This document shows, in pieces, positions 25,737-50,104 of a stretch of DNA of 64,000 nucleotides. This stretch comes from Nonomuraea sp. NEAU-A123. Lineage in GTDB: Bacteria; Actinomycetota; Actinomycetes; Streptosporangiales; Streptosporangiaceae. The stretch's first letter is position 1; every line of letters starts with the position of its first letter. Under the pieces are notes generated by a model, which saw only the letters and a program-made list of their open reading frames with translations, had not been told where the DNA came from and made no database searches. A program made the translations under genes and the position numbers. The DNA is taken from the NCBI RefSeq assembly GCF_018603905.1, contig NZ_JAHFZZ010000002.1, positions 744,001 through 808,000 on the forward strand. Direction: 5' to 3'.

Positions 25737-25750
25737 AAATGTCGACACTA
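25737..25750. promoter_or_regulatory. TGTCGACA box 1 (dioxygenase operon / marR)
   Basis: Reads aaaTGTCGACActa. It sits 95 bases upstream of the dioxygenase start and 38 before the MarR start, next to the MarR-type palindrome. It is one of eleven intergenic copies, assigned to the GntR regulator encoded from 32490. Confidence 0.7.
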
Positions 25751-25787
25751 CTTAAAGGTCCACAGGGCCCACCAGAAGGGACGCGCC

Positions 25788-26297
25788 TTGTCCGGGACAT
25801 CGCCGACCGGCCCGATCGCCGTACGTGAGACCACGGAAAGGATCATGTATCTGATCCACCGCACCAGAGTCGCGACCGCGGAGGCGGTCAACGCGGAGCT
25901 GGCCGACCTCGGACTCAACGGCACGCTGTCGCTGATCTTGGAGACCATCTTCGAACTCGGCGAGACCAATGCCGCCGAGCTGGCGCGCCGCTGCCTGGTC
26001 ACCCGGCAGGCGCTCACCGGACCGCTCAATGACCTGCAGTCACGCGGGCTCGTACAGCGGCCGGAACCGTCCACCCGCGTGCGGGTGCGCCCGATCACGC
26101 TGACCGCCGAGGGGCGCGAGGCCGCCGGGATCGCGCGGCTGCGGGTGGGCGAGGCGGAACGCCGGTCGATCGCATCGTTCGAACAGGGCGAACTCGATCA
26201 GTTGCGCCGCCTGCTGACCCGGCACGCCGCCGCATGGGAGGAGCTCGCGCGGGACGGCGCCGCGCCCCGGGGGCGAGCGCCACGGTCCGCCTGGTGA
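25788..26297 (+). CDS. MarR-family transcriptional regulator
   Basis: The 169-residue protein has a MarR winged helix: TNAAELARRCLVTRQALTGPLNDLQSRGLV in outline as the HTH, with the wing around RPEPSTRVRVRPITLT and the closing helix. It starts at TTG 25788, eight bases after GAAGGG; no better start exists before MYLIHRT. MarR proteins often sense phenolic compounds and repress the adjacent catabolic operon, here the dioxygenase, MBL and hydroxylase genes transcribed the other way. It stands between that operon and the larger GntR-associated set, so it may tie the two together. Confidence 0.88.
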   Translation: MSGTSPTGPIAVRETTERIMYLIHRTRVATAEAVNAELADLGLNGTLSLILETIFELGETNAAELARRCLVTRQALTGPLNDLQSRGLVQRPEPSTRVRVRPITLTAEGREAAGIARLRVGEAERRSIASFEQGELDQLRRLLTRHAAAWEELARDGAAPRGRAPRSAW

Positions 26298-26330
26298 CGG
26301 CACGCACTAGCCATGAGAGCAAAGTGATAT

Positions 26331-26344
26331 TAGTGTCGACACTC
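26331..26344. promoter_or_regulatory. TGTCGACA box 2 (FAH/amidohydrolase/FAH/metallolyase operon)
   Basis: Reads tagTGTCGACActc, with a perfect 12-base palindrome AGTGTCGACACT at 26332-26343. It lies 100 bases upstream of the TTG start of the FAH gene, the first of four plus-strand genes. Confidence 0.72.
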
Positions 26345-26443
26345 GCCCGTTGCGTCAGGGCGCGGACGGAGGGCACGACCCGGCGTTCCACGGCCTGGTC
26401 CACGCTCGTTCTGCCTTCGATCTCATCCGGGGGGATTACCCGA

Positions 26444-27469
26444 TTGTGCGCTTTCAGCTTTGAGAACACCCCTGCCGACGGCTTCGCGCTGGCCAGGTTC
26501 GCGGTCGCGGGCCGCCCAGTCGTCGGTGTTGTCGTGGATGGCACGGCCTATCCGCTGGGAGCCGCACCGGCTCCCGAGTACGCCTCGGTCACCTCGATCG
26601 AGGAACTGCTGCCGGAATGGGACACACACGTGGACCGCCTTCACGCGTGGGCCGGGAGGCTTCGGGCGGGGTCCGTCGCCACCCTGCCCATCACCACCGG
26701 CACCGCCGACGTGCTGGCGCCCACGCGGCCGGCCGGCATCTTCCAGGCGGCGGCCAACTATCGCAAGCACGTCGTCGATCTGATGGTCGCCTCACCACGC
26801 CCCGAACACCGCGATCTGACCGAACCGGAGCGGCGGGCCTTCGCGACGCGCATGATGGACGAACGCGCCGCCTCCGGCACCCCCACCGTCTTCTGCGGCC
26901 TTCCGTCGAGCCTGTCCGGCCCGTACGACGACGTGGTGATCCCCCACATCACCGAGCAGTGCGACTGGGAGTTGGAGCTGGCGGCGGTGATCGGCCGTCC
27001 CGCCCGATACGTCTCGCGCGACTCGGCACTGGAGTTCGTCGCCGGATACACGATCGTCAACGACATCACGATGCGCGATCGGCTTTATCCGAGCGGGGAC
27101 AGCGCGCGGGGCCCGGACTGGCTGGCGTGCAAGGGCGCGCCCACCTTCCTCCCGGTCGGCCCACTGGTCGTCCCCGCGAGGTACGTCCCCGATCCGATGG
27201 CCCTGACCATCACGCTGAGGCTCAACGACGTGGTGATGCAGCACGAGGCGACCGCGGACATGATCTTCGATCTGCCCAGGCTGATCGAGCACGCCTCACG
27301 GTACGCACGGCTACTCCCCGGAGACCTGCTGCTCACCGGATCCCCGGCCGGCAACGGCGTGCACCACGGCCGTTTCCTCCAGGACGGCGACGTGATGGAG
27401 GGACGGATCACCGGGCTCGGCGTCCAGCGGACCCCGGCGGTCGCCGAGCGCCGGGCATCCGCGACATGA
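26444..27469 (+). CDS. Fumarylacetoacetate hydrolase family protein (copy 1)
   Basis: The 341-residue protein has an N-terminal cap and a C-terminal FAH barrel. Metal ligands are in WELELAAVIGRP (E-x-E near 174-178) and GYTIVNDITMRD (Asp near 205); a Lys-Gly pair follows in ACKGAPTFLPVGPL, and LLTGSPAGNG is the closing loop. FAH enzymes hydrolyse acylpyruvates or decarboxylate/hydrate 2-oxo acids after ring cleavage. TTG 26444 is used because GGGGGGA lies eight bases before it and no ATG or GTG is better. It overlaps the next gene as ATGA. The box at 26334 lies in its promoter. Confidence 0.85.
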   Translation: MCAFSFENTPADGFALARFAVAGRPVVGVVVDGTAYPLGAAPAPEYASVTSIEELLPEWDTHVDRLHAWAGRLRAGSVATLPITTGTADVLAPTRPAGIFQAAANYRKHVVDLMVASPRPEHRDLTEPERRAFATRMMDERAASGTPTVFCGLPSSLSGPYDDVVIPHITEQCDWELELAAVIGRPARYVSRDSALEFVAGYTIVNDITMRDRLYPSGDSARGPDWLACKGAPTFLPVGPLVVPARYVPDPMALTITLRLNDVVMQHEATADMIFDLPRLIEHASRYARLLPGDLLLTGSPAGNGVHHGRFLQDGDVMEGRITGLGVQRTPAVAERRASAT

Positions 27470-28497
27470 TCGACGTCCACGCGCATCTGGGCGTGCCGGA
27501 GGCCGAGCGGCTGGCCGCCGCCGACGCCGGTTTCACCGCACACCAGTCGGCCGTCCGCGCGCGTTACCGGGATCCGAGCACCGCCGCCCACATGCGCTCG
27601 GTCGCGCCGGAGTGGGAGCGGCTGCTCACCGACCTCGGCGAGCGCGTCACGTGGATGGACCGGGCCGGGGTGGACGTCCAGCTGGTGTCGGTCAACCCCG
27701 GGCAGTACCACTATTGGGCCGCACCCGCGACGGCGGCCGCGCTGGTGCGAGTGATCAACGGGCGGCTGGCGGCGGCCGCCGACGCCCACCCCGACCGGCT
27801 GCTGGCGCTCGGCACGGTCGCCCTGCAACACCCCGAACTCGCCGCCGCCCAGCTTCACCATGCGGTCCACGAACTCGGCATGGTCGGTGTGCAGATCTCC
27901 ACCAACGCCGCCGGCCGTGACCTGTCGGCACCCGACCTGGAGCCACTCTGGCACGCCGCCGAGGAGTGCGACGCGGTGATCTTCCTTCATCCGCTGGGCT
28001 GCCCGCAGCTCACCGACCGGCTCGCCCCGGCCTATCTGAACAACATCGTCGGCCAGCCGATGGAGACCACGATCGCCATCTCCCACCTGATCTTCACCGG
28101 AGTACTGGATCGCCATCCGGGGCTTCGCCTGTGCGCCGCGCACGGCGGCGGCTACCTGCCGCACTACCTGGGGCGCGCTGAGCACGCCTATGCCGTCCGG
28201 CCCGACAGCCGCACGATGGCGCACCCGCCGGGGCACTACCTGCGACGGATGTGGTTCGACTCGGTGGTGCACTCGCCGGCGGTGGCCCGTTCCCTCATCG
28301 ACGTCGTGGGGGCCGACAGGCTCGTCGTCGGCACCGACTACCCCTTCGACATGGGCGACGCAGACCCAGGCGTGCTGATCGAGGCGATCCCGGGACTCGA
28401 CGGCGCCGAACGCGCGGCGATCCGTACCGGCAACGTGCGGGCACTCCTCGGCCGCCACGCCGACCGGTTGCCCGCCCCCTCTGCCCGACCGATCTAA
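27466..28497 (+). CDS. Amidohydrolase-2 family decarboxylase/hydrolase (ACMSD-like)
   Basis: The 343-residue TIM barrel has H-x-H at residues 5 and 7 (DVHAHL), a His in VIFLHPLG, CAAHGGGYLPHY (near 224), and the invariant Asp in VVGTDYPFDMG (near 289). This is the layout of 2-amino-3-carboxymuconate-semialdehyde decarboxylase, gamma-resorcylate decarboxylase and related non-oxidative decarboxylases. It most likely removes CO2 from an aromatic acid or a ring-cleavage product. It begins with an ATGA overlap on the FAH gene and is followed by a second FAH gene, fitting a run of ring-fission steps. Confidence 0.85.
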   Translation: MIDVHAHLGVPEAERLAAADAGFTAHQSAVRARYRDPSTAAHMRSVAPEWERLLTDLGERVTWMDRAGVDVQLVSVNPGQYHYWAAPATAAALVRVINGRLAAAADAHPDRLLALGTVALQHPELAAAQLHHAVHELGMVGVQISTNAAGRDLSAPDLEPLWHAAEECDAVIFLHPLGCPQLTDRLAPAYLNNIVGQPMETTIAISHLIFTGVLDRHPGLRLCAAHGGGYLPHYLGRAEHAYAVRPDSRTMAHPPGHYLRRMWFDSVVHSPAVARSLIDVVGADRLVVGTDYPFDMGDADPGVLIEAIPGLDGAERAAIRTGNVRALLGRHADRLPAPSARPI

Positions 28498-28507
28498 GGA
28501 GACGCCC

Positions 28508-29467
28508 ATGCGCTGGTCCACCTACCGGTCCCCGCTCGACGGACGCGAGCACATCGCCGTGCTGCGCGACGGCCTGCTGCACGGTTGCCGCTCGCACACC
28601 CGGCTCCTGGATCTGCTGCGCGACGACAGCGTCACCCTGTGCGAGGCGGGGCAGAACACCCTCGCCGACCCGCTGGAACGGCTCAGCGTCGCCGACGCCG
28701 ATCTGCTCGCCCCCATCCCGGTGCCGCCCTCGATCCGGGACTTCATGGCCTTCGAGGACCACCTGAAGCCGATTCTGCGCGCCCGCGGCGCCGCCATCGA
28801 TCCGGCCTGGTACGAGATCCCCGCCTTCTACTTCACCAACCCCGCCGCCACCCTGGGGCCCACCGACGACGTTCCCGTCGCCCCGGGAGCCGTGGAGCTG
28901 GACTACGAACTGGAGGTGGCCGCCGTGATCGGGCGGCCTGGCCGCGACCTCACACCAAGGTCCGCCGAGGCGCACATCGCCGGATATGTGCTGATGTGCG
29001 ATTGGAGCGCGCGAGACCTGCAGCGCCGCGAACGCGGCGTCGGCCTCGGCCCGGTGAAAGGTAAGGACTGGGCCACCAGCTTCGGCCCGTACCTCGTGAC
29101 CGCCGACGAACTGCCGACCCGCCACGCCGAACCGGGCCCGGAGCTGACGATGCGCGCCGAGGTCAACGGCCGCGCCTACTCCCAAGGCAGGCTCGGCGAC
29201 CTGTACTGGTCGTTCGGCGAAATGATCAGCTACGCCTCGCGCGGAACCGAGGTCCGGCCAGGCGACATCATCGGCAGCGGAACGGTCGGCACCGGCTGCA
29301 TCGCCGACCTGGCCGCACGCCACAGCCCCGAGGAGTACCCCTGGCTGTCGGCGGGCGACCGCGTACGGCTGGCGGCCGACGAGCTGGGCGCGATCGACTG
29401 CGTCCTGGTGCCCGGCCCACCGGTGATCCCGCTACGCCTGGCCGGGGACCTGCGGAAAGGGGAGTGA
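28508..29467 (+). CDS. Fumarylacetoacetate hydrolase family protein (copy 2)
   Basis: The 319-residue protein begins MRWSTYRSP and has a cap region followed by the FAH barrel. Metal ligands are in DYELEVAAVIGRPGRD (near 132) and CDWSARDLQ (Asp near 163), with GPVKGKDWATSFGPYLVT and the closing GSGTVGTGCI loop. The SARDLQRRE pattern groups it with fumarylacetoacetases proper rather than the 2-hydroxyhepta-dienedioate isomerases. A perfect AAGGAG precedes ATG. It follows the ACMSD-like gene by ten bases and precedes the metallolyase by six, so it is part of the same four-gene operon. Confidence 0.87.
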   Translation: MRWSTYRSPLDGREHIAVLRDGLLHGCRSHTRLLDLLRDDSVTLCEAGQNTLADPLERLSVADADLLAPIPVPPSIRDFMAFEDHLKPILRARGAAIDPAWYEIPAFYFTNPAATLGPTDDVPVAPGAVELDYELEVAAVIGRPGRDLTPRSAEAHIAGYVLMCDWSARDLQRRERGVGLGPVKGKDWATSFGPYLVTADELPTRHAEPGPELTMRAEVNGRAYSQGRLGDLYWSFGEMISYASRGTEVRPGDIIGSGTVGTGCIADLAARHSPEEYPWLSAGDRVRLAADELGAIDCVLVPGPPVIPLRLAGDLRKGE

Positions 29468-29473
29468 GGAAAG

Positions 29474-30832
29474 GTGGACGACCGGCTGAGCAAACCCGAG
29501 ATCTTCACCGCCGACGAGATCCGCCGGTACAGGGCCGACATCGCCGGCGTGCGCGAGCCGGGGGCGTACGAGCCGGGCCGGTGGTCGGTGAGCCCGCTGA
29601 ACCGCGCCCCCGAGATCGTCGGCCCGATGCCCTCCCGGGTCAGGCTCCGGGACGTCACCTTGCGAGCGATCGACGCGCTCCCCGGCGTTGGGGTGGATCC
29701 ACAGGCCAAGCGCGCGTTCCTGAGGCGGCTCGTACACGCGGGAGTGCCCGAGGTCGTCACCGCCGGGGCACGGGGCAGGTCCGCCGAGGACTTGCGCGCC
29801 GACATCGAGACGATCAAAAGCGAGGACCCCCGCTGCCGTACGACCTGCCCGATGGTCCTGGACCGGGACGATCTGGCGGCGCCCGCGGCGGCCGGCTACG
29901 ACGCGGTGCAGATCTGGGTGCCGCCATGGGGCGAGGCGTCGCGGATCTACGAGGGATCGGTGCACACCTCCGCGTGGAACGGCGCGGACTGGCGGAAGCC
30001 GGGACTGCCCCGCGATCGCGACGGTTTCGTCCGCCGCGCCGCCGAACTGATCGAACGGGCCCGGGAGTGTGGCCTGGAGGTCACCGCGCCGCTGCTGATG
30101 GTCTCCTACCTGACCGCCGAACGGCTCGGCGAGACCTGCGCGACACTCGCCGACGCGGGAGCCGACGAGATCGCGCTGTTCGACGGTCCAGGCGGGATGG
30201 GACCGGAGGCGATCGCCCAGCTGGTCGGCCTGGTCAAACTCGCGGCCCCGCAGGTTCGCGTCGGCGTCCACCCGCACAACTCCTTCGGCCTGGCCGTCGC
30301 GAACGCGATCGCCGCCGCGCGGGCGGGAGCGGAGGTGATCGAGGTGTCGGTCAACGGATACTGCGGCGGACCGGGCAATGCCGACCTCGCGTCCACGGTC
30401 GCGGCCTGCGAAGCGCTGTACGGCGTGCGCACCGGCGTACGCGCCGGCCAGCTCAAGGCGCTCTCCCGCGCGGGCGTCGACCTGACCGGCTACGACATCG
30501 CCCACAACCATCCGATCACCGGTGACAAGGTCTACAACTGGGGTGGCCTGGATTTCATGACGCAGGAGACCATCGTCGACGAATTGCTGCACAACGCCAT
30601 CGCCCCGTCCTGGTCGGGCGGCCACCTAAGGGTCTCCCTGACACAGGCGAGCGGGCCGTTCACGATGTGGGACAAGCTCGCCGAGCTTGGCCTACGGCTA
30701 CCCGTCGCCCAGGTCGCCGCCGTGCTGGAGCGATGCAAGGCGGAGATGGCACGTCTGGGCCGGCTGCTGAACGACGACGAGATCATCGCCGTCGCCCGGC
30801 GCGCCACCCTCACCGAGGTGGATCCGCGCTGA
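29474..30832 (+). CDS. DRE-TIM metallolyase-like protein (HMGL/isopropylmalate synthase superfamily), copy 1
   Basis: The 452-residue protein has the barrel of the HMG-CoA lyase/alpha-isopropylmalate synthase/4-hydroxy-2-oxovalerate aldolase superfamily. The first strand reads RLRDVTLRAIDALPG, with Asp60 and Arg64, but the usual R-D-G-E-Q becomes R-A-I-D-A. The metal histidines are His266 and His268 in VGVHPHNSFGLA, and VNGYCGGPGNADL carries the conserved Asn302. The 50-residue opening, with FTADEIRRYRADI and AYEPGRWSVSPLNR, is not typical of the superfamily. It could condense or cleave an oxo acid, like the aldolase ending meta-cleavage pathways. A paralog is encoded from 36627. The end overlaps the convergent oxidase gene by 23 bases. 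Confidence 0.75.
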   Translation: MDDRLSKPEIFTADEIRRYRADIAGVREPGAYEPGRWSVSPLNRAPEIVGPMPSRVRLRDVTLRAIDALPGVGVDPQAKRAFLRRLVHAGVPEVVTAGARGRSAEDLRADIETIKSEDPRCRTTCPMVLDRDDLAAPAAAGYDAVQIWVPPWGEASRIYEGSVHTSAWNGADWRKPGLPRDRDGFVRRAAELIERARECGLEVTAPLLMVSYLTAERLGETCATLADAGADEIALFDGPGGMGPEAIAQLVGLVKLAAPQVRVGVHPHNSFGLAVANAIAAARAGAEVIEVSVNGYCGGPGNADLASTVAACEALYGVRTGVRAGQLKALSRAGVDLTGYDIAHNHPITGDKVYNWGGLDFMTQETIVDELLHNAIAPSWSGGHLRVSLTQASGPFTMWDKLAELGLRLPVAQVAAVLERCKAEMARLGRLLNDDEIIAVARRATLTEVDPR

Positions 30833-32255
30833 GCTCAGCTCCTTGTGCCGTCGTGGCGCCGTCTCCCGGAGCGGGGTGGAGCGACGGGGCGGCGCGGGCG
30901 TAGGCGGTGGTCGACTCGGCCGGGGTCATGTAGGAACGGAACAGGCCGTCGGGGTCGTAGACGGCGCGGATCTTCTCCAGACGGACGGCGTTCTCCGGGC
31001 TGAGACCGTGGTCGAAGCGGTCGGCCACGTTGTTGTCAGAGAACTGCAGGCCCTGGGACAGGTGCTGGATCTCGCTGAGTGTGCCGTGGACCCACCGCTC
31101 GCGGTCGAGGTCGTCGGCCGGGTCGCTCCAGCCGGAGTTCGGGGAGAGATACACCTTGGCCTGGGAGGACCAGCACGCGCGAGGGGTGGTGGGGTGGTGT
31201 CCCCAGAGCATCCACAGGACGAAGTCGTTGTCTCCGGGGATCGTGTCGAGCATCTGGCGGGCGGCGCCGACGATCTCGCTCGCCGGTCCGCCGGCCCAGA
31301 TGCCGTCGAGCGCCCAGCGCAGCCCGGCGGGGGTGAGGCGGTCGGCGATGTCGTACAGCTCCACGATCGAGGTCTCCCGGTTGACCGTCGCGCGGAGGGC
31401 CCGGTCGCGGAAGGGGATCTGTTCGAGAGACTCAAGGAGGTCCTCGCCCGTCTCCTCGGTGCAGAACGCCGTCGCGGTCAGGGACGCGGCGTGCACGCCG
31501 AGACCCGGTGTGAAGCCGACCTTCGCCGAGATCTCCACGGCCGGTGACAGCGTCTCCAGATGGTCGTACGACCACCGCAGCAGCTCGTCCCGCAGCTCCA
31601 GCGGATAGGTGTGCACGGTCCGGAGGATCTTGCTGGCGCGTGGGTGGACGTCGAGGTGGAACCGGGTGACGACGCCGAAGAAACCGGGGCCGCTGCCGCG
31701 CGCCGCCCAGAGCAGGTCGGGGTGGTTCTCGTCGTCGGCGTGCACGAGTTCGCCGTCGGCGAGGACCACGTCGATCGCGCGGATGCTCAGGCAGGCGGGG
31801 CCCCAATAGCGGGAGTTCCAGCCGTAGCCGCCGCCGAGGATGAAGCCGCCGATGCCCACGGTCGGCGCGTGCCCGGTGGGGAAGAACAGGCCGTGCTCGT
31901 ACAGGAGGTCGTTGAGTGCCGGCCCCTTGACCGCTGGACCCACCGCGGCGACTCGACCGGGGACGTCCAGCTCGATGTCCTGGAGGCGCGACAGGTCGAT
32001 CAGCAGCCCGCCATCACGCACGCCGTTGCCGACCCAGCTGTGGCCGCCCGACCGGATGCTGACCCGCAGCCCTTCGGCCAGGGCCAGCCGGACCGCCCGG
32101 ACCACGTCGTCCTCGGTTTCGGCCAGGACGATGACGGCAGGGTAACGGTCGGGCTTGCGGGCGTTCCACACCGCGTCGAGCCGCGCCTGCTCGTAACCGC
32201 TCTCGCCCCGCCGCAGTACGCTGCCCGGAGCATGGTCGGTCATCGGATCGGACAA
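30810..32255 (-). CDS. FAD-linked oxidase, berberine-bridge-enzyme-like (copy 1)
   Basis: The 481-residue protein has the PCMH-type FAD domain: VSIRSGGHSWVGNGV (His near 68, the usual site of covalent FAD attachment), LIDLSRLQDIELD, FFPTGHAPTVGIGGFILGGGYGWNSR and FGVVTRFHLDV, and ends with the BBE segment YDPDGLFRSYMTP. Such enzymes oxidise alcohols, phenols or ring systems with oxygen. No signal peptide is seen, so it is cytoplasmic. TTG 32255 is chosen with AAGGAGG just upstream; ATG 32243 is possible. It is divergent from the GntR gene, with two TGTCGACA boxes between. A close paralog is encoded from 50704. Confidence 0.85.
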   Translation of the reverse strand: MSDPMTDHAPGSVLRRGESGYEQARLDAVWNARKPDRYPAVIVLAETEDDVVRAVRLALAEGLRVSIRSGGHSWVGNGVRDGGLLIDLSRLQDIELDVPGRVAAVGPAVKGPALNDLLYEHGLFFPTGHAPTVGIGGFILGGGYGWNSRYWGPACLSIRAIDVVLADGELVHADDENHPDLLWAARGSGPGFFGVVTRFHLDVHPRASKILRTVHTYPLELRDELLRWSYDHLETLSPAVEISAKVGFTPGLGVHAASLTATAFCTEETGEDLLESLEQIPFRDRALRATVNRETSIVELYDIADRLTPAGLRWALDGIWAGGPASEIVGAARQMLDTIPGDNDFVLWMLWGHHPTTPRACWSSQAKVYLSPNSGWSDPADDLDRERWVHGTLSEIQHLSQGLQFSDNNVADRFDHGLSPENAVRLEKIRAVYDPDGLFRSYMTPAESTTAYARAAPSLHPAPGDGATTAQGAELSADPPR

Positions 32256-32312
32256 GGCGCCTCCTTGGTTGAAGACGGACATAGCGCATGATGAGTACCG
32301 GAAACTGGACTG

Positions 32313-32326
32313 TACTGTCGACACTA
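32313..32326. promoter_or_regulatory. TGTCGACA box 3 (flavin oxidase promoter)
   Basis: Reads tacTGTCGACActa. It is 58 bases upstream of the flavin oxidase start in the divergent region shared with gntR. Confidence 0.72.
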
Positions 32327-32376: not shown

Positions 32377-32390
32377 TGCTGTCGACAGTA
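32377..32390. promoter_or_regulatory. TGTCGACA box 4 (gntR promoter)
   Basis: Reads tgcTGTCGACAgta, with the 12-base perfect palindrome CTGTCGACAG plus flanking bases. It lies 100 bases upstream of the GntR start and 64 from box 3, suggesting autoregulation. Confidence 0.72.
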
Positions 32391-35719: not shown

Positions 35720-35733
35720 TAGTGTCGACAGAA
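35720..35733. promoter_or_regulatory. TGTCGACA box 5 (CMD-SDR-lactonase operon)
   Basis: Reads tagTGTCGACAgaa, 48 bases upstream of the CMD start in the divergent region shared with the next SDR operon. Confidence 0.72.
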
Positions 35734-35793: not shown

Positions 35794-35807
35794 TAGTGTC
35801 GACATAC
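35794..35807. promoter_or_regulatory. TGTCGACA box 6 (SDR-metallolyase operon)
   Basis: Reads tagTGTCGACAtac, 24 bases upstream of the SDR start and 74 from box 5. One box per divergent promoter repeats the pattern at gntR. Confidence 0.72.
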
Positions 35808-36601: not shown

Positions 36602-36626
36602 CACGCCCCGTCTTTGGAGGACGTCT

Positions 36627-41626: not shown

Positions 41627-41633
41627 CTGCGGA

Positions 41634-42698: not shown

Positions 42699-42712
42699 TA
42701 GTGTCGACATGG
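42699..42712. promoter_or_regulatory. TGTCGACA box 8, overlapping the start codon of an SDR gene
   Basis: Reads tagTGTCGACAtgg. The GTG start codon at 42701 is inside the box, which also encodes the first codons V-S-T-W. The ribosome binding site GAGGAGG is five bases upstream, so the start assignment is good. Confidence 0.7.
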
Positions 42713-43459: not shown

Positions 43460-43486
43460 CCAGACCACCCACTGCCAGGAGACAGC

Positions 43487-44269
43487 ATGACCACCCCCGT
43501 ATCGCGGCGTTTCGCCGGCAAGACCGTGCTCGTCACCGGCGCCGGCACCGGCTTCGGCGCGGAGATCGCCGTACGCGCCGCCCAAGAGGGCGCCGACGTC
43601 GCCATCCACTACCGCAGCTCGCGCGCGGGCGCGGAGGCCACCGCCGAACGCGTGACCGCGCTCGGACGCAAGGCGATCCTCGTCCAGGCCGACATCGCCG
43701 AGCGCGAGCAGATCAGCAGGATGGCCGACGAGGTGTGGTCGCACTTCGGCCGCGTCGACGCCGCCTTCAACAACGTCGGAGACGTCGCCCGCGACCAGAT
43801 GTCCTGGCGCGACATCACCGAGGAGTCGATCGACCATGTCCTGGCCGTGGACGTCAAGGGCACCCTGCTCTGCACCCACGAGTTCGGCTCCCGCATGCTG
43901 GACCAGGGCGGCGGCTCGATCGTCAACATCGGCTCGACCGTGGTGGCACGCGGCAGCGCCCGCGCCCCGCAGTACGCCGCCGCCAAGTACGGCATCATCG
44001 GCCTGACCAAGTCCTACGCGCACGCCTTCGCGCCGCTGGTCCGGGTCAACGTCTTCGCCCCCGGCTTCATCGAGACCGAGGCGACCCTCGGCCGTGAGGA
44101 CTGGAAGAACGGGCGCGGCGACCAACTCCGCAAGGCCACCCCGATGGGACGCATCCCCGGTCCCGCCGAGCTCGCCGGCACCGCCCTGTTCCTGGCCACC
44201 GAGGATGCCGGACACATCACCGGCGGCTTCCTCGTCGCCGACGGCGGCTACAACATGATCGGCGCCTGA
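43487..44269 (+). CDS. Short-chain dehydrogenase/reductase (SDR copy 4)
   Basis: The 260-residue SDR has TGAGTGFGAEIAVRAA with IHYRSSRAG, where Arg and Ser after the second strand suggest NADPH use. NNVGDVARD, IVNIGSTVVARGS, the catalytic QYAAAKYGI and GGFLVADGGYN follow. The pattern is close to FabG-like 3-oxoacyl reductases. The gene follows SDR copy 3 by 27 bases and precedes the SnoaL-like gene by 22. Having NAD- and NADP-type SDRs side by side would allow an oxidation and a reduction in one pathway. Confidence 0.87.
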   Translation: MTTPVSRRFAGKTVLVTGAGTGFGAEIAVRAAQEGADVAIHYRSSRAGAEATAERVTALGRKAILVQADIAEREQISRMADEVWSHFGRVDAAFNNVGDVARDQMSWRDITEESIDHVLAVDVKGTLLCTHEFGSRMLDQGGGSIVNIGSTVVARGSARAPQYAAAKYGIIGLTKSYAHAFAPLVRVNVFAPGFIETEATLGREDWKNGRGDQLRKATPMGRIPGPAELAGTALFLATEDAGHITGGFLVADGGYNMIGA

Positions 44270-44291
44270 CCCGCTCAGCCTGGAGGACCCG

Positions 44292-44720
44292 GTGACCCAA
44301 CTGACCGTCGAAGACCGCATCGAGATCGAAGAGCTGATCTCGCGGCTCTGTCACGCCCTCGACTTCAGCAGGCCAGAGGACTTCGTGGCCGTCTTCGTGC
44401 CGCACGGCGCGTTCCAGGCGACGACCTCGGCCAGATCGGGCGGCGCGGTCCGGTTCCGCCACGAGGGTCACGACGGGCTCCGAGCCTTCGCTGATGCCGC
44501 CGCCGCCAAGCGCGGCGGCCTCGGCCGGCACTGGACCGGCAACCTCGTCGTGCGGGGCGTTCCCGGCGGCGCCGAGGCCACGTCGTACGTCATGTTCCTG
44601 GAGATCGACCCCGGGACCGGAGAGCGGACGATCCCGCTCTCCGGCGTCCACCACGACGTCTTCACCCGTACGGAAGCGGGCTGGCGCTTCGTCGAACGCA
44701 CCATCGTCGCCGACTTCTGA
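44292..44720 (+). CDS. SnoaL-like (NTF2-fold) protein, copy 1
   Basis: The 142-residue protein is a small NTF2-fold cone: VEDRIEIEELISRLCHALDFSRPEDFVAVFVPHGAF in outline opens the helix-strand unit, HEGHDGLRAFAD follows, and the curved sheet ends with VFTRTEAGWRFVERTIVADF. Polar residues inside the cone (His32 in particular) could serve an isomerase, dehydratase or cyclase; relatives include SnoaL cyclases and scytalone dehydratase. It closes the SDR-SDR-SnoaL operon. It may act on a polycyclic or dihydroxy intermediate. Confidence 0.8.
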   Translation: MTQLTVEDRIEIEELISRLCHALDFSRPEDFVAVFVPHGAFQATTSARSGGAVRFRHEGHDGLRAFADAAAAKRGGLGRHWTGNLVVRGVPGGAEATSYVMFLEIDPGTGERTIPLSGVHHDVFTRTEAGWRFVERTIVADF

Positions 44721-44723
44721 CCG

Positions 44724-44744: not shown

Positions 44745-44759
44745 TGCGGGGCGGCGGCG

Positions 44760-45176
44760 TCACTTGCGGTCGATCAGCTCGATGAGGTTGCCGTAGGGGT
44801 CGGCGACGAAGCAGACACGAGCGCCCGGGCGGGGAGAGGGGCCGGGTTCCATGCGGACGGTGGCACCGGCGCCGACGAGGCGGGCGAACTCCGCGTCGAC
44901 GTCTTCGACGCACAGGCAGATGTGCCCATAGCCGAGCGTGCCCGCGGCCGCGAGGGCGCTGTCCGGGGCGAGACCCGGCACGGCGCCGGGGCGATGCAGC
45001 AGCTCGATGCGGTAGCCGCTTTCGTGCAGGAGCATCACGCCGCGCAGGTCGGTGCCCGCGACCGCGAAGGCGGGGGCCGGGGTGAGGTCGAGGGTGTCGC
45101 AATACCACTCGGTCGCGGCCTCGAGGTCGGGTACGGAGATCCCGACATGGTCGAAACGGATCTTCTGCCTGCTCAT
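44760..45176 (-). CDS. Single-domain VOC (glyoxalase/bleomycin-resistance fold) protein
   Basis: The 138-residue protein has one pair of VOC modules: FDHVGISVPDLEAATEWYCDTL (metal His in FDHV), YRIELLHRPG (Glu), GHICLCVEDVDAEFARL (second His) and ADPYGNLIELIDRK (second Glu). All four positions of a metal site are present, unlike in binding-only proteins, so it is probably a lyase, isomerase or epimerase such as glyoxalase I or methylmalonyl-CoA epimerase. ATG 45176 has AGGTGG upstream. It is divergent from the alpha/beta hydrolase gene with only 39 bases between, and no TGTCGACA box is there. Confidence 0.83.
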   Translation of the reverse strand: MSRQKIRFDHVGISVPDLEAATEWYCDTLDLTPAPAFAVAGTDLRGVMLLHESGYRIELLHRPGAVPGLAPDSALAAAGTLGYGHICLCVEDVDAEFARLVGAGATVRMEPGPSPRPGARVCFVADPYGNLIELIDRK

Positions 45177-45215
45177 GGTGAACCACCTGTCGTCTGATCG
45201 GAAGGAGTACATGTC

Positions 45216-45989
45216 ATGGCCGCAGAACGTGCCCATACCGTCGTCAGGTACGACGACGTCGTCATCGACGTGATCTCGCAGGGACGGGGACCGGTCGTGC
45301 TGCTGGCGCCGTCACTCGGGCGGGGGGCGGAGGACTTCGACGCCGTGGCGGCGGACCTGGCGGCGGAGGGATTCCGGGTCCTCCGACCGCAGCCGCGCGG
45401 CGCCGGGGCGTCGGCCGGGCCCATGACGGGGCTGAGCTACCGCGACTGGGCGGCCGACCTCGCCGCCGTGATCGCGGCCGAGCGGGCCGGTCCGGCCGTC
45501 CTGGTCGGGCACGCGGCGGGCAGCCGGTACGCCCGGGCGGCGGCGGCCTACCACCCGGAACTCGTCCGCGGCGTGGTGGTTGCCGCGGCGTCGGCCGATC
45601 GGCCTCCCCCCGCGGACCTCGCGGCGGCACTCACCGGCAGCGCGGACGCCTCCCTGGTGGACGACCGGCGGCTGGCGGCGCTCCGCGTCGCCTTCTTCGC
45701 GCCGGGAAACGACCCATCGCCATGGCTGCGGGGCTGGTTTCCCGCGACCCATCGGGCGCAGCGTGCGAGCGTCGAAAGCGACGGCTGGCGCTCCGGCGGC
45801 CGGGTGCCCCTGCTGGACCTCATCGCCGAGCGCGACCCCTGGCGACCGCCCGCCACCTGGTCCGAGCTCCAGGAAACGCTGGGCGACCGGGTCTCCACGG
45901 CCGTGATTCCCCAGGCCGCCCACGCGCTCTTCCCCGAGAGACCCCGGCAGGTCGTCCAGGCCGTGGCCGCCTGGATCCGCACACTCTGA
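45216..45989 (+). CDS. Alpha/beta-hydrolase fold protein with Ala at the nucleophile position
   Basis: The 257-residue protein has the alpha/beta hydrolase order: VVLLAPSLGRGAEDFDAV (oxyanion region), FRVLRPQPRGAGAS, the elbow LVGHAAGSRYARA, a cap around 150-200, VPLLDLIAERDPW (candidate acid) and IPQAAHALFPERP (His). The elbow reads G-H-A-A-G where G-x-S-x-G is expected, so the Ser nucleophile is absent. Cofactor-free dioxygenases, C-C lyases and some non-catalytic members keep the fold with altered residues. AAGGAG precedes the ATG. It may act on a ring-fission product by another mechanism, or be a binding protein. Confidence 0.8.
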   Translation: MAAERAHTVVRYDDVVIDVISQGRGPVVLLAPSLGRGAEDFDAVAADLAAEGFRVLRPQPRGAGASAGPMTGLSYRDWAADLAAVIAAERAGPAVLVGHAAGSRYARAAAAYHPELVRGVVVAAASADRPPPADLAAALTGSADASLVDDRRLAALRVAFFAPGNDPSPWLRGWFPATHRAQRASVESDGWRSGGRVPLLDLIAERDPWRPPATWSELQETLGDRVSTAVIPQAAHALFPERPRQVVQAVAAWIRTL

Positions 45990-46000
45990 CCGGCCCGGTA

Positions 46001-46120
46001 GCGGCCGCCCATACGGCGCCCTCACCGGTGCTGGCCGCCCGCACGACGCCCCCACCGGTGCCGGACGCCCGCACGACGCCCCCACCGGTACTAGCCACCC
46101 GCACGGCAGCCTCATGGGTG
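46001..46120. repeat. Four 30-base tandem repeats
   Basis: Units start at 46001, 46031, 46061 and 46091. Each has the plan (c/g)(t/c)(g/a)GCCGCCC-GCACG-CGCC-CCACCGGTG; units 2 and 3 are nearly identical, and 1 and 4 are degenerate. They fill the gap between the alpha/beta hydrolase gene and the ABC ATPase gene, and the last nine bases overlap the ATPase stop end. The unit is a multiple of three but lies outside any supported gene. Confidence 0.9.
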
Positions 46121-46960
46121 GACCGGCGACGCCGCTCCCGGCCGTACGGACGAATCGTTCCCGCCGCGGATGCGGGTCAGGACGCGCGTGCGCAGCTCGG
46201 CGAATCGGGGGTCGGCGCGGGTTTCGATCTGGTCGCGGCCGGCGCCGAGGTCCACGTCGAGGTCGTCGACGACGGTCGCGGGTTTGCCGCCGAGGACGAT
46301 CACGCGGTCACCGAGGTAGACGGCCTCGTCGATGTCGTGGGTGACGACGACGATCGAGATCCCCAGTTGCCTGCGCAGGGCGAGCGCGAGGTCCTCCAGG
46401 TCGAACCTCGCCTGGGCGTCGACCGAGCCGAAGGGCTCGTCCATGAGCAGTACCGGCGACTCGTAGGCGATGGCCCGGGCGATGGCCACCCGCTGCTGCA
46501 TGCCGCCCGACAACTGCCAGGGGTACTTGTCGCCCACATCCGCCAGCCCCACCGCGTCGAGGCTCTCGTCGGCGCGGCGACGCCGGACGTCCCGCTTGAC
46601 GCCAAGGCCCTGGAGAGGGAAGGCGACGTTGTCCCGGACCTTCATCCACGGCATCAACGAGCCCCGGTAGTCCTGGAACACGACGGCGATCTCGGCGAGG
46701 GGTTCGGTGACGGCCCGGTCGCCGTATCTGACGGTGCCCGATGTCGGCCGCATCAGGCCCGACAGGCAGCGCAACAGCGTCGTCTTGCCCGCGCCGGAGG
46801 GGCCCACGATGCACACGAACTCGCCCGGTTCGACACGGAGGGACAGCCCGGCCAGCACATGATGCGCGGCGCCGGCGTGGCCGTAGGACTTGGAGACGTC
46901 CTCGACGATCAGTGCGGCGCGCTCGTGGCCGACGGCGGAGCTGTTGGGACGCAGGTTCAT
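46112..46960 (-). CDS. ABC transporter ATP-binding protein (SsuB/TauB-like)
   Basis: The 282-residue ATPase has Walker A GPSGAGKTT (near 53), Q-loop VVFQDYRGSLMPW, signature LSGGMQQRVAIARA (near 150), Walker B VLLMDEPFG (near 170) and the switch VTHDIDEA. It groups with nitrate/sulfonate/taurine/aromatic-acid importers. It energises the import of the regulon's substrate together with the two permeases and the lipoprotein encoded upstream on the same strand. Its start is an ATGA overlap with permease 2. The 30-base repeats begin at its stop end. Confidence 0.93.
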   Translation of the reverse strand: MNLRPNSSAVGHERAALIVEDVSKSYGHAGAAHHVLAGLSLRVEPGEFVCIVGPSGAGKTTLLRCLSGLMRPTSGTVRYGDRAVTEPLAEIAVVFQDYRGSLMPWMKVRDNVAFPLQGLGVKRDVRRRRADESLDAVGLADVGDKYPWQLSGGMQQRVAIARAIAYESPVLLMDEPFGSVDAQARFDLEDLALALRRQLGISIVVVTHDIDEAVYLGDRVIVLGGKPATVVDDLDVDLGAGRDQIETRADPRFAELRTRVLTRIRGGNDSSVRPGAASPVHP

Positions 46961-47832
46961 GAGACCTCGTTCTGGTCGGCGTTCTGGTCGGCGTTCTGCA
47001 CGGCGTCGTGGCTGGGGTCTGAGCTGTGGCCGGCGTGCGTGCGGGCGGCCCGCCGGGCCCGTGGTGGGCGCTGGAAGTACCGGCCGAGCAGTGCGTGCTC
47101 GCAGACGAGGAGGAGCAGGCTCAGGCCGTAGCCGAGGATGCCGATCAGGATCGTGCCGGCCCAGGTGTCGGTCACCTGGAAGCTCGACCCGCTGCGCAGG
47201 ATGAAGTTGCCGAGCCCGACCGGCGAACCGTAGATCTCGCTGACCACCATCAGGACGACCGCCACCGACAGCGCGATCCGCACGCCGGCGAAGATCTGCG
47301 GCAGCGCTCCGGGCAGCACGACCTTCAGCAGGCGCAGCCGCCAGGGGATGCGGTAGCTCCGCGCGCTCTCCCGTACGGCGGGGTTGATGCCGTGCACGCC
47401 GCTGATGGTGTTGAGCAGGATCGGCCACAGCGCGCCGATGAAGATCAGTAGTACCTTCGGCGCGGCGCCGATGCCGAGCGTCAGGATGATGACGGGCACG
47501 AAGGCGACGGTGGGGGTGGCCCGGGCGAAGTCGAGCAACGGAGCGGTCGCCCGCCGCAGACGGTCGTACTCACCGATCACCGCCCCCAGGCCGACGCCGA
47601 CCACGGTCGCGATGACGGTCCCGAGGGCGATGTTACGCAGGCTGAAGACGAGGTCGCCCTTGAGGTCCCCCTCCGTGAGGCCCGTCCAGAGCGCTCCGGC
47701 CATCTCCGAAAGCGGCGGGAAGTAGAAGCTGCCGCTCCTCGCTGTGGCCACCCACAGGACGGCGACCACCACCACCGGCAGCCAGAGCTGCTTGAGGAAG
47801 GACCTGACGAGGCCGTTGGACACGATATGCAT
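46957..47832 (-). CDS. ABC transporter permease 2 (SsuC/TauC-like)
   Basis: The 291-residue membrane protein has about six transmembrane helices; the first is WLPVVVVAVLWVA and the last is ILIGILGYGLSLLLLVC. The EAA loop lies around SARSYRIPWRLRLLKVVLPGALPQIFAGVRIAL. It would form half of the importer channel. The C-terminal tail carries a 12-base in-frame repeat giving NADQNADQN. ATG 47832 has GAGGAGA just upstream. It follows permease 1 by ten bases and overlaps the ATPase gene. Confidence 0.9.
   Translation of the reverse strand: MHIVSNGLVRSFLKQLWLPVVVVAVLWVATARSGSFYFPPLSEMAGALWTGLTEGDLKGDLVFSLRNIALGTVIATVVGVGLGAVIGEYDRLRRATAPLLDFARATPTVAFVPVIILTLGIGAAPKVLLIFIGALWPILLNTISGVHGINPAVRESARSYRIPWRLRLLKVVLPGALPQIFAGVRIALSVAVVLMVVSEIYGSPVGLGNFILRSGSSFQVTDTWAGTILIGILGYGLSLLLLVCEHALLGRYFQRPPRARRAARTHAGHSSDPSHDAVQNADQNADQNEVS
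46969..47004. repeat. Three 12-base tandem repeats in the permease 2 C-terminus
   Basis: GTTCTGGTCGGC at 46969-46980 and 46981-46992, and GTTCTGCACGGC at 46993-47004. It is four codons long, so the reading frame is kept. It encodes the hydrophilic NADQ tail of permease 2. Confidence 0.9.
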
Positions 47833-47842
47833 TCTCCTCACC

Positions 47843-48676
47843 TCAGCTCGCCTGCGCCGGGGGCCGCCAGCGCAGCAGCCTGGTCTCCATGACACCTGAC
47901 AGCCGATTGATGGAGTAGCCGATCACGCCCGCCGTGATGATGTAGGCGTAGGCGGCGGCCGAGTTGCCGCTCTGCTGTTCCTGGGTGACCATGTGGCCGA
48001 TGCCGGGCAGGGTGGTCAGGATCTCCACCCCGATCGCCACCAGCACCGAGGTCGTCGCGGCCAGCCGCAGACCGGTCATGATCGATGGGAGGGCGCTCGG
48101 CAGGATCACGCGGCGGAAGCGGAGCAGCCGCGGAATCCGGTAGCCGCGGACGGTCTCCTGGATCATCGGCTCCACGCCGCGAGCGCCGTACTGCGCCTGC
48201 AGGAAGATCGGGAAGACGCAGGCGATGAACACGACCGTGGCCTTCATCCCCGATGTGGACCCGAGCACCAGCAGGAAGACCGGGAGCAGAGCGATGACGG
48301 GGAACGACCTGAGCACGTCCACCAGCAGCCGTGAGGACTGCTCGACGGCGGCGTAGGTCCCGCTCACCAGGCCGAGCGGGACGCCGATCACGATGGCCGC
48401 CGCGAGCCCGGCCACCGCGCCGCGCAGGGTGTCGCCGAGCGCGCCCCAGAACTCGCCCGTGCCCGCCATGGCGGCCAGTTCTCCCGCCACCGCGCGCGGG
48501 CCGGGCAGCGCGCTCGCGCTCACCATGCCCACGGCGCTGACCAGCGTCCAGACCGCGAGTACGAGCAGGAAACAGAGAAGCTGAAGCCATATGGTCTTGT
48601 CACGGCCGTCGCCGGCCTTCGAGCCCCGCGTGGACTCGTAGGCCGGCGCGGATCCTCGGCCGGTCGATGTCGCCAT
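47843..48676 (-). CDS. ABC transporter permease 1 (SsuC/TauC-like)
   Basis: The 277-residue membrane protein has a 30-residue charged start, then helices such as IWLQLLCFLLVLAVWTLVSAV and a C-terminal AYIITAGVIGYSINRL. The EAA loop is around RGYRIPRLLRFRRVILPSALPSIMTGLRLA. It differs clearly from permease 2, so the channel is probably a heterodimer, whereas most sulfonate-type importers use one permease twice. It lies between the substrate-binding lipoprotein and permease 2 in a four-gene operon. Confidence 0.9.
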   Translation of the reverse strand: MATSTGRGSAPAYESTRGSKAGDGRDKTIWLQLLCFLLVLAVWTLVSAVGMVSASALPGPRAVAGELAAMAGTGEFWGALGDTLRGAVAGLAAAIVIGVPLGLVSGTYAAVEQSSRLLVDVLRSFPVIALLPVFLLVLGSTSGMKATVVFIACVFPIFLQAQYGARGVEPMIQETVRGYRIPRLLRFRRVILPSALPSIMTGLRLAATTSVLVAIGVEILTTLPGIGHMVTQEQQSGNSAAAYAYIITAGVIGYSINRLSGVMETRLLRWRPPAQAS

Positions 48677-48734
48677 CAGTCGCCGCCTCGAAATCGATGT
48701 CGGTGTGCCGTGCTGACGCCGTTGTGCCGCCGGC

Positions 48735-49754
48735 TCAGCTGGAGGTCGTGGTGGTCGGGGCCTTGTCCCAGTAGAGGGAATCCTGGGCGGGTGCCGACTT
48801 GATCAAGCCGAAGGCGACCATCGAGGTGATGACCGTCGAGAGGGTCTTCGTGTTGATCTCTTTGCTGTAGATCTGGATGGTCCGCTTGGCGATGTAGTCG
48901 GCCGGCAGCTTGGTGTACTTGGTGTCGACCGCGCGCACGGCGTCGGGGTGGGAGTTGGCGTAGTCGATTCCCTTGGCCACCGCGCCGATGAACTTCTCCG
49001 CCACGGCGGGGTTCTTGGCCAGGAATTCGGTGCTGGAGAAGATCAGCGCCTGGGGCAGGCCCGGCAGCGCGTTCGTCCCCTCGCCGATGGCGCGCATGCC
49101 CGCGGCCTTGCCCGCGTCGTAGAACGTGGCGAAGGTGTAGGCGGCGTCGACCTTGCCCGTGCCCACGGCGTCGATCAGGGACGTCACCGGCAGCGCGACG
49201 AACTTGATCGTGCCGGGGTCGGCGCCCGCCTCCTTGGCCGAGTACTCGCAGATGAACTGGAGCGTACCCCCCAGGGCTGGCAGGCCGATGGTCTTGCCGC
49301 CGACGTCGGCGAAGGTCTTGATCGGGCTATCGGCCTTGACCAGCAGGCCGTCGGAGGGCGCGGTCTTGGTCGTGGAAGCCTGAAGCTGGGTGACGATCCT
49401 GACCGGCAGCTTCTGGGCTGCCGCCTTGAGGAATCCGGAGCTGTCAGTCATCGCGAACTGTGCCTCGCCGTTGGCCACCGAGGGCGCGTTCTGCGAGGTG
49501 TCCGCGGCCCCTTCCTTGATCGTGACGTTGAGGCCGGCCTCCTTGAAGAAGTTCTGGTCCTGCGCGATGAAGAGCGGCTCGAAGGTGGATCCGGTCGAGC
49601 GCAGGATCGTGACCGACGTCAGCCCGCCGGCGTCGGTCTTCACCTCGGAGCCGCCCGCGCCGCAGGCGGCGAGGGCGGTGACCGCGACGAGGACCGCGGC
49701 GGCGGCGCGGAGGCTACCGAGGGTGGGGCGGAGGACAATGCTCCGTGACGACAT
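48735..49754 (-). CDS. ABC transporter substrate-binding lipoprotein (NMT1/SsuA-like)
   Basis: The 339-residue protein starts with a lipoprotein signal ending in TALAAC, with Cys31 as the lipidation site. The mature part is an NMT1/SsuA-type periplasmic-binding fold: FIAQDQNFFKEAGLNV, VANGEAQFAMTDSSGFLKAA, TFADVGGKTIGLPALGGTLQF, VALPVTSLIDAVGTGKVDAAYTF. Relatives bind sulfonates, nitrate, thiamine precursors and aromatic acids such as phthalate. It is the first gene of the importer operon; ATG 49754 has AAAGGAG upstream, and boxes 9 and 10 lie 90-150 bases before it. The ligand is unknown but is presumably the compound degraded by the island. Confidence 0.92.
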   Translation of the reverse strand: MSSRSIVLRPTLGSLRAAAAVLVAVTALAACGAGGSEVKTDAGGLTSVTILRSTGSTFEPLFIAQDQNFFKEAGLNVTIKEGAADTSQNAPSVANGEAQFAMTDSSGFLKAAAQKLPVRIVTQLQASTTKTAPSDGLLVKADSPIKTFADVGGKTIGLPALGGTLQFICEYSAKEAGADPGTIKFVALPVTSLIDAVGTGKVDAAYTFATFYDAGKAAGMRAIGEGTNALPGLPQALIFSSTEFLAKNPAVAEKFIGAVAKGIDYANSHPDAVRAVDTKYTKLPADYIAKRTIQIYSKEINTKTLSTVITSMVAFGLIKSAPAQDSLYWDKAPTTTTSS

Positions 49755-49840
49755 TTGTGCTCCTTTGCCAACGCGTTGTCGCGGTGGTTCAGCGAGGGCT
49801 TCGACCGTGGCGAGTAACCAGCGGCAACGTGGCCGAAACA

Positions 49841-49854
49841 TACTGTCGACATTT
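49841..49854. promoter_or_regulatory. TGTCGACA box 9 (ABC importer operon)
   Basis: Reads tacTGTCGACAttt, 87 bases upstream of the lipoprotein start. Confidence 0.7.
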
Positions 49855-49889
49855 GCCTCCGTCAAGGCTTTGGCCGAAATCGACCCGAA

Positions 49890-49903
49890 TCCTGTCGACA
49901 CTC
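49890..49903. promoter_or_regulatory. TGTCGACA box 10 (ABC importer operon, second copy)
   Basis: Reads tccTGTCGACActc, 49 bases from box 9. Two boxes on one promoter could allow looping or cooperative binding. Confidence 0.65.
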
Positions 49904-50090
49904 CCCTTGTGGGCGAGTGGTCGAACGGCCTCGGAATCGCGGCCCACCACTCCCACGAACCCTCTCAGATAGCCCTCTGACATCGCCTTTGGAGCAAGAG
50001 CGGGGGCTTCGGCGAAGGCCGCGATCCGTCGGCCGACATGCGGAGGGCGGACCCTCGATTTCTCTTCCACTTTGCAGGGTTGACCCGCAT

Positions 50091-50104
50091 TACTGTCGAC
50101 ACTA
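50091..50104. promoter_or_regulatory. TGTCGACA box 11 (SnoaL-like/flavin oxidase operon)
   Basis: Reads tacTGTCGACActa, identical to box 3 over all 14 bases, and is 55 bases upstream of the SnoaL-like start. Both boxes precede BBE-type oxidase transcription units. Confidence 0.74.

What the first reader, a model, noticed from the sequence alone, without database searches (positions are those of the whole stretch)
25737..50104. Eleven TGTCGACA palindromes define a GntR-type regulon across a 25-kb catabolic island
The perfect 8-base palindrome TGTCGACA occurs between genes with cores at 25740, 26334, 32316, 32380, 35723, 35797, 42525, 42702, 49844, 49893 and 50094, with shared flanks giving TA(G/C)TGTCGACA(C/G)TA. 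Every one lies in a promoter region of the island, often one per gene in each divergent pair. Elsewhere I found by eye only two copies, both inside genes. By chance an 8-mer is expected about once per 65 kb. A FadR/FCD GntR regulator gene (32490-33293) sits in the middle with two boxes in front of it, and FCD operators have the form T-GT-N-AC-A, which this box fits. About 25 genes would be under one signal.
Basis: partly seen in the sequence, partly recalled or inferred. Interest (0 to 1): 0.85.

Follow-up and report, generated by a model that had tools for sequence, protein, structure and literature searches.

The report
GntR operator boxes of catabolic island
Eleven copies of the palindrome TGTCGACA lie at the upstream ends of genes in a 24-kb island of a likely actinomycete genome, and the same palindrome clusters around relatives of the island's own GntR-family gene in several bacterial phyla, so the protein made by that gene likely binds the boxes and would switch the predicted degradation genes on and off together.

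Summary
TGTCGACA occurs 13 times in the window (shuffle mean 1.04): eleven at upstream ends of island genes, two inside genes. The 12.74-Mb genome has 104 copies; with the flank WAN, 15 of its 19 half-sites are in the island. Around GntR relatives TGTCGACA ranks first of 256 palindromic 8-mers in 17 actinobacterial and in 16 more distant loci; around 47 relatives of 30-37% identity TGTATACA is first. All 38 loci whose GntR has two sequence marks hold the box, none TGTATACA; of 53 loci without both marks 39 hold TGTATACA. Neighbouring boxes lie near whole helical turns apart in 41 of 43 pairs (weaker, 7 of 9 runs, allowing for ancestry), which suggests cooperating dimers. The core is known: Pseudomonas PrpR, also FCD, has the predicted motif ATTGTCGACAAT. 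Corrections: the TA flank is loose (9 of 11 boxes, either side); box 8 overlaps a likely start codon; the published fuller FadR form TKGT/ACMA does not fit; a MarR-family gene was missed. Binding, repression and inducer are untested.

The parts
32490..33293 (+). GntR-family regulator, FCD domain (possible earlier start GTG 32457)
   Evidence: Pfam GntR 2.9e-12 and FCD 2.3e-19; model pLDDT 83, Foldseek to FCD structures incl. PmiR 7xp1 and Atu1419-DNA 6za3
25740..25747 (.). box 1, between extradiol dioxygenase gene (-) and MarR gene (+)
26334..26341 (.). box 2, between MarR gene and FAA hydrolase gene (start 26444 TTG, or 26333 GTG which the box overlaps)
32316..32323 (.). box 3, about 34 bp before the FAD oxidase start 32282 (-); 64 bp from box 4
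32380..32387 (.). box 4, 110 bp before the gntR ATG
35723..35730 (.). box 5, before CMD gene 35088-35672 (-); 74 bp from box 6
35797..35804 (.). box 6, 34 bp before SDR gene 35831 (+)
42702..42709 (.). box 8, overlaps the likely GTG start codon of SDR gene 42701; box before this gene in 11 of 11 mapped loci
49844..49851 (.). box 9, about 90 bp before the binding-protein start 49754 (-); 49 bp from box 10 (out of phase)
49893..49900 (.). box 10
50094..50101 (.). box 11, 65 bp before SnoaL gene 50159 (+)
22477..25642 (-). extradiol dioxygenase, metallo-beta-lactamase-fold hydrolase, FAD monooxygenase (likely operon from box 1)
26444..30832 (+). FAA hydrolase, Amidohydro_2, FAA hydrolase, HMGL-like (likely operon from box 2; start uncertain)
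30810..32282 (-). FAD_binding_4 oxidase
33354..35672 (-). Amidohydro_2 (2-pyrone-4,6-dicarboxylate hydrolase-like), SDR, CMD family
35831..37952 (+). SDR and HMGL-like (isopropylmalate-synthase-like)
37969..42506 (-). carboxylesterase, Amidohydro_1, two FAA hydrolases
42701..44720 (+). two SDRs and a SnoaL-like protein
44760..49754 (-). glyoxalase-like, unnamed ORF 45312-46115, ABC transporter (ATPase, two permeases, NMT1/SsuA-like binding protein)
50159..52041 (+). SnoaL-like and FAD_binding_4 oxidase (EncM-like)
25788..26297 (+). MarR-family regulator between boxes 1 and 2 (start 25788 TTG or 25845 ATG); rival or second regulator
   Evidence: Pfam MarR_2 9.8e-8; weak HpaR/Saro_0803 likeness below cut-offs; starts

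Best explanation
The GntR/FCD protein encoded at 32490-33293 likely binds TGTCGACA as a dimer and would act as a repressor of the whole predicted catabolic island, including its own gene, until a pathway metabolite releases it. Three of the five divergent gaps hold two boxes, one holds one and one holds three; paired boxes likely lie on the same face of the helix so that two dimers would bind cooperatively or bridge. Shown by calls: the boxes, their near-confinement to the island, their co-occurrence with this GntR subfamily across phyla, the mostly whole-turn spacing. Inferred: binding, repression, cooperation, an aromatic-type substrate, release by a metabolite.
For: Box almost confined to the island. 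Around GntR relatives TGTCGACA is first of 256 palindromic 8-mers: 82 against 6.3 expected in 17 actinobacterial loci (17 of 17 with two or more), 35 against 3.6 in 16 more distant loci (11 of 16 with one or more, 9 with two or more); in 47 loci of 30-37% relatives TGTATACA is first (41 against 1.6, 38 of 47 loci) and TGTCGACA 30th. Of 91 loci, 38 have both sequence marks: 38 of 38 have the box, 35 two or more, 0 TGTATACA; of the other 53, 16 have one or more boxes, 5 two or more, 39 TGTATACA. In 20 mapped sources boxes stand before first genes of operons (FAA hydrolase 11 of 11, SDR 11 of 11, gntR 18 of 20, second SDR 9 of 15) and not before inner genes (FAA hydrolase 3: 0 of 11; SDRd: 0 of 11; esterase: 0 of 15). 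Spacing: 41 of 43 pairs within 2 bp of a multiple of 10.5. Precedents (passages or sections read): PrpR/PA0797, a repressor, predicted motif ATTGTCGACAAT, gel shift of a 250-bp region (PMC9765439); Atu1419, operator ATGTATACAT, tetramer that loops DNA (PMC7797058). PmiR (7xp1) and Atu1419-DNA (6za3) are among the five best fold matches.
Against: No binding or expression data. The loci were fetched by GntR, so other regulators in them were not tested; in L064 two boxes stand just before an IclR-type gene about 7 kb from gntR. The sequence marks were chosen after seeing the groups. Four relatives of 43-50% identity (L049, L050, L056, L058) have no exact box; L049 and L050 have AAAGTGT(A/G)GACACTTA before gntR. 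Two actinobacterial loci (L035, L036) have no box within 220 bp of gntR. In several loci the boxes lie 5-10 kb from gntR. Window boxes 9 and 10 are 49 bp apart, out of phase. Allowing for ancestry the phasing is weaker: 15 of 17 distinct spacings (7e-5), 7 of 9 runs (0.03). PmiR lacks both marks in the alignment, so they are not the only way to read this core.
Confidence: 0.85

Rival explanations
1. The MarR-family protein at 25788-26297 reads the boxes, or shares the control of the island with GntR.
For: Its gene lies between boxes 1 and 2 and it has weak likeness (below cut-offs) to HpaR, a regulator of aromatic catabolism. A palindrome AGTAGTT-N6-AACTACT stands at 25711-25730 beside box 1, and a further half-site ACTACT at 25747 overlaps the last base and flank of box 1.
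Against: No MarR relative (over 60 bits) was among the matched ORFs of the 33 loci L035-L067, 28 of which hold a box; these loci reach at most 10 kb to each side. Its likely own palindrome occurs once in the window. It may still co-regulate the extradiol dioxygenase operon.
Confidence: 0.1
2. GntR binds the boxes, but mostly as an activator or as single independent dimers; the whole-turn spacing is inherited rather than selected.
For: Distances of boxes to starts vary widely (extrapolated starts, roughly +31 to -176 bp). Suvorova 2015 describes divergons in which each of two FadR-type sites serves its own operon (PMC4494728). Many 51-53-bp spacings come from related Streptomyces.
Against: The same promoter shows near-whole-turn steps between species: gntR 52-53, 62-64, 86; SDR 51, 74; CMD 63, 74, 114; transporter ATPase 53, 64, 74. 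The fold relative PrpR is a repressor (PMC9765439).
Confidence: 0.3
3. The boxes are not operators but a repeat or a compositional accident.
For: In other genomes TGTCGACA pairs occur without this GntR, some as parts of a conserved 76-77-bp element (L120-L123).
Against: Flanks differ between boxes, 15 of 19 flanked half-sites of the genome are in the island, and boxes stand before first genes of operons and not before the inner genes tested.
Confidence: 0.02

Closest known systems
PrpR (PA0797) of Pseudomonas aeruginosa, GntR/FCD; that it is the PmiR of PDB 7xp0/7xp1 is recalled
   Same: Same eight-base core in its predicted operator ATTGTCGACAAT; FCD fold; repressor of a carboxylate pathway (PMC9765439). 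PmiR 7xp0 is the best PDB sequence match (named).
   Different: Flanks AT instead of A(G/C); 29% identity to 7xp1; no NSV or RRRPR marks; His residues where this protein has Q178, Q222, A244; published as regulator of the prp genes, not of an island with eleven boxes.
Atu1419 of Agrobacterium fabrum, VanR-class FCD tetramer
   Same: FCD fold, short palindrome with TGT/ACA ends, two sites in one divergent region, proposed looping (PMC7797058).
   Different: Centre TA (ATGTATACAT), not CG; three His bind zinc; site distance 190 bp, here mostly 51-75 bp.
FadR-subfamily divergons with double sites (Suvorova 2015, PMC4494728)
   Same: Two sites in a divergent gap, either shared or one per operon; [quoted passage not shown]
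   Different: No GTCGAC in its main text; helical phasing is not mentioned in the two sections read (10 and 16); supplements not read.
HypR of Streptomyces coelicolor
   Same: Actinobacterial FCD repressor of a catabolic regulon (PMC6608401, passages read).
   Different: Binds CTNTGC(A/C)ATGTCAC, has the three metal-binding His, scattered targets.

Membership tests
GntR family, FCD (FadR/VanR) subfamily | GntR winged helix plus FCD domain | tested here: met
   Pfam GntR 46.5 bits (cut-off 27), FCD 70.5 (24.3); fold matches
VanR-type FCD | six-helix effector domain, no domain swap | tested here: inconclusive
   closer in fold to VanR-type members named in PMC7797058 or (TMq 0.55-0.72: 7xp1, 9isw, 6za3, 4p9f and others) than to E. 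coli FadR (1hw1, 0.46); the model has seven helices after the linker if the short one 202-209 counts
Metal-binding FCD group | three conserved metal-binding His | tested here: not met
   positions hold Q178, Q222, A244 (alignments); Q222 and A244 invariant, Q178 at least 90% in 17 homologues; that the aligned His bind metal is inferred from TM0439/HypR (PMC6608401)
PrpR/PmiR orthologue | same operator core | tested here: met
   TGTCGACA core
PrpR/PmiR orthologue | linked to methylcitrate cycle genes, high identity | tested here: not met
   29% identity; no citrate-synthase, PrpD or PrpB-type domain among the Pfam hits of the 30 ORFs scanned
PhnR (TIGR03338) | NCBIfam equivalog cut-off 271.5 bits | tested here: not met
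   105.5 bits
Operator bound by this GntR | direct binding | not testable with these tools
   no wet experiment

The most novel reading that the evidence does not exclude
A trans-phylum subfamily of FCD regulators that has lost the metal-binding histidines, reads a CpG-centred palindrome with an altered wing (R-R-R-P-R-V), and controls whole catabolic islands through operator pairs kept in helical phase, so that dimers on the two halves of each divergent promoter bridge and silence both genes together; the cargo genes change between phyla while the box does not.
Probability: 0.38. Interest if true: 0.65.

Novelty: new variant of a known kind. Interest (0 to 1): 0.52.

Why it matters
It gives a widespread regulator subfamily, for which my searches found no study, a concrete operator, a protein signature that goes with it and a list of likely controlled enzymes, so that orphan degradation islands in Streptomyces, Nocardioides, Nonomuraea-like and other genomes can be delimited from sequence. 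The contrast between TGTCGACA and TGTATACA readers with nearly the same recognition helix (SRTPVREALM) is a clean case for finding what reads the centre of a GntR operator.

Tried and rejected
That the TA flank is a -10 element fused to the operator: TA is upstream of the nearest box in 25 of 68 cases and downstream in 20 of 68, no clear asymmetry, rejected. That wing residue R112 alone decides the CG centre: the four boxless near relatives have Y or H there, but L116/L166 has Q and boxes and PmiR has another wing, so it stays a guess. That two boxes alone detect the system: 19 of 394 genomes of the class have a pair, own included; in the 7 loci of such pairs that I checked (L119-L123, L133, L134) no GntR helix lay within about 1.5 kb. 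Naming the substrate: a literature search listed nothing that looked like this cluster; the enzymes suggest ring-cleavage products but no substrate could be fixed. The box in print: (listings). Of the four papers with TGTCGACA and GntR I looked at the passage in two: PrpR is a true motif, the other a primer; of the 74, 40 were listed and none opened except PMC9765439. A search for 7XP0 found no paper.
Full report
Observation. TGTCGACA occurs 13 times in the window (1.04 expected; 0 of 100 shuffles reach 13). Eleven copies are the ones listed; 549 and 33674 are inside genes. The window lies in a 12.74-Mb genome of 82 contigs with 104 copies; the reversed control word has 34. With the loose flank WAN there are 19 half-sites, 15 of them in the island. 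Of the other four, three lie in long coding-like frames and only L033 looks intergenic. The organism is likely a Nonomuraea: the best protein match, 97% identical, carries that name.

Island. Pfam, NCBIfam and PDB searches show four FAA hydrolases, two Amidohydro_2 proteins (one close to 2-pyrone-4,6-dicarboxylate hydrolase, E 1e-69), two HMGL-like proteins, four SDRs, two FAD_binding_4 oxidases (one searched against the PDB, nearest EncM), a carboxylesterase, an Amidohydro_1, an extradiol dioxygenase, a flavin monooxygenase, a metallo-beta-lactamase-fold protein, a CMD protein, SnoaL-like proteins and an SsuA/NMT1-type ABC transporter. This points to breakdown of an aromatic or lactone-type compound; the substrate is unknown. 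At E up to 1e-30 the GntR gene was found in 4 of 98 relatives, its own genome included, and in 0 of 53 other congeners, so the island is likely accessory. In the Streptomyces group 13 of 392 genomes have a match at E up to 1e-45.

Link of GntR and box. I grouped them by identity and taxon. In 17 actinobacterial loci TGTCGACA is the most over-represented of 256 palindromic 8-mers (82 against 6.3; 17 of 17 loci have two or more). In 16 further loci with 37-53% identity it is again first (35 against 3.6; 11 of 16 with one or more, 9 with two or more). In 47 loci with 30-37% identity it is 30th, and TGTATACA is first (41 against 1.6; 38 of 47 loci). TGTATACA is the core of the published Atu1419 operator ATGTATACAT (PMC7797058, passages and sections 21 and 23 read), which suggests that the method finds true operators.

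Protein marks. Both groups share, nearly without change, the recognition helix SRTPVREALM. Of 29 sequences grouped by TGTCGACA (one, L074, probably by chance), 28 have N75, 27 S76, 28 V77, 28 R110, 28 P111 and 27 R112; of 36 grouped by TGTATACA, 32 have D75, 36 E76, 34 G110, 36 A111 and 31 V or I112. The marks were chosen after this comparison, as LNSV(D/E/Q)L with small variants and a wing R(R/K)RP(R/Q/T/I)V. Over 91 loci: 38 have both marks, 38 of 38 have one or more boxes, 35 two or more, 0 TGTATACA; 53 do not, of which 16 have one or more boxes, 5 two or more, 39 TGTATACA. Three loci have one mark only (L053, with boxes; L056 and L058, without). L049 and L050 have no exact box; at the same place before gntR they have AAAGTGTAGACACTTA and AAAGTGTGGACACTTA. 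In Atu1419 Arg45 and Thr46 of this helix touch the guanine and a central base, and Glu34 the backbone (paper; by my alignment these correspond to R87, T88 and S76).

Where the boxes lie. Among 20 sources with mapped gene starts boxes stand before the FAA hydrolase FAH4 in 11 of 11, the SDR opposite it in 11 of 11, gntR in 18 of 20, a second SDR in 9 of 15, the binding protein in 3 of 3, CMD in 3 of 16 and the ATPase in 3 of 6; before inner genes of the operons they are rare or absent (FAH3 0 of 11, SDRd 0 of 11, esterase 0 of 15, Amidohydro_1 2 of 14, permeases 0 of 5 each). In other organisms the genes near the boxes differ: thiolases, an IclR-type gene right beside two boxes, SnoaL/ring-hydroxylase-like and AMP-binding proteins in Sphingosinithalassobacter; Ldh_2, Iso_dh and a transporter in a Chloroflexi MAG; UbiD and molybdopterin enzymes in Streptosporangium. 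So the box follows the regulator rather than one set of enzymes.

Spacing. Among 167 non-redundant boxes there are 43 neighbouring pairs up to 130 bp apart: 49, 51-53, 61-64, 74-75, 86, 95, 104-106, 114, 119. At a period of 10.5 bp R is 0.78 and the phase near zero; 10.75 fits slightly better (0.81). 41 of 43 lie within 2 bp of a whole number of 10.5-bp turns (chance 41%); 15 of 17 distinct values (7e-5); 7 of 9 runs (0.03). The first number is inflated by shared ancestry; the last is the cautious one. Exceptions are 49 (window boxes 9-10) and 119. The wider gaps of the window (177 and 201 bp) were not part of the test. Within one promoter the spacing changes by near-whole turns: 52-53, 62-64 and 86 before gntR; 51 and 74 before the SDR gene; 63, 74 and 114 before CMD; 53, 64 and 74 before the ATPase. 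This fits same-face binding and a dimer-dimer contact, as in the looping Atu1419 tetramer, but it is not proof.

Ligand side. AlphaFold2 gives a model with pLDDT 83 and pTM 0.72, closest to FCD proteins of the VanR kind. Where PmiR and a Brucella relative have histidines, this protein has Q178, Q222 and A244, conserved in its homologues. So a metal-free effector pocket is predicted.

Literature. P. aeruginosa PrpR (PA0797) has the predicted motif ATTGTCGACAAT, represses the prp genes and shifts a 250-bp fragment holding it (PMC9765439; passages read). That it is the PmiR of 7xp0/7xp1 is recalled. Therefore the core operator is not new for the FCD family. No paper on this subfamily or on such an island was seen (search listings of an open-licence library only).

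Verdict. New here are the trans-phylum operator-protein link, the two-operator contrast, the lost metal site and the helical phasing. Binding, sign of control and inducer remain to be tested. On checking, I lowered the probability of the boldest reading slightly (0.40 to 0.38) because one promoter that I had counted for whole-turn jumps (61 bp in L039) could not be tied to the SDR gene.

Noticed in passing
25711-25730: Palindrome AGTAGTT-GACGTA-AACTACT beside box 1, with a further half-site ACTACT at 25747 overlapping the flank of box 1: likely the operator of the MarR gene, perhaps competing with GntR.
   Followed up: partly
   Followed up: no
L156, L157, L169, L170: In several Streptomyces-group genomes two GntR paralogues with the same sequence marks stand 6-7 kb apart in convergent orientation, with boxes mostly several kb away.
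   Followed up: partly
L049:9852, L050:9852: Ktedonobacter relatives carry AAAGTGT(A/G)GACACTTA before gntR, an operator-like site with a changed centre, together with a changed wing (RRRPY).
   Followed up: partly
42701-42709 and 26333-26341: Two boxes overlap in-frame GTG codons (GTG TCG ACA): the likely start of an SDR gene and a possible start of the FAA hydrolase frame.
   Followed up: partly
L064:2010-2978: Two boxes 106 bp apart stand just before an IclR-type gene, about 7 kb from the gntR relative; a second regulator may be a target there.
   Followed up: no
57243-58676: Several short frames on the + strand have an odd codon-position GC pattern (about 0.45/0.66/0.99) beside long - strand genes; probably not coding in that frame.
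   Followed up: no
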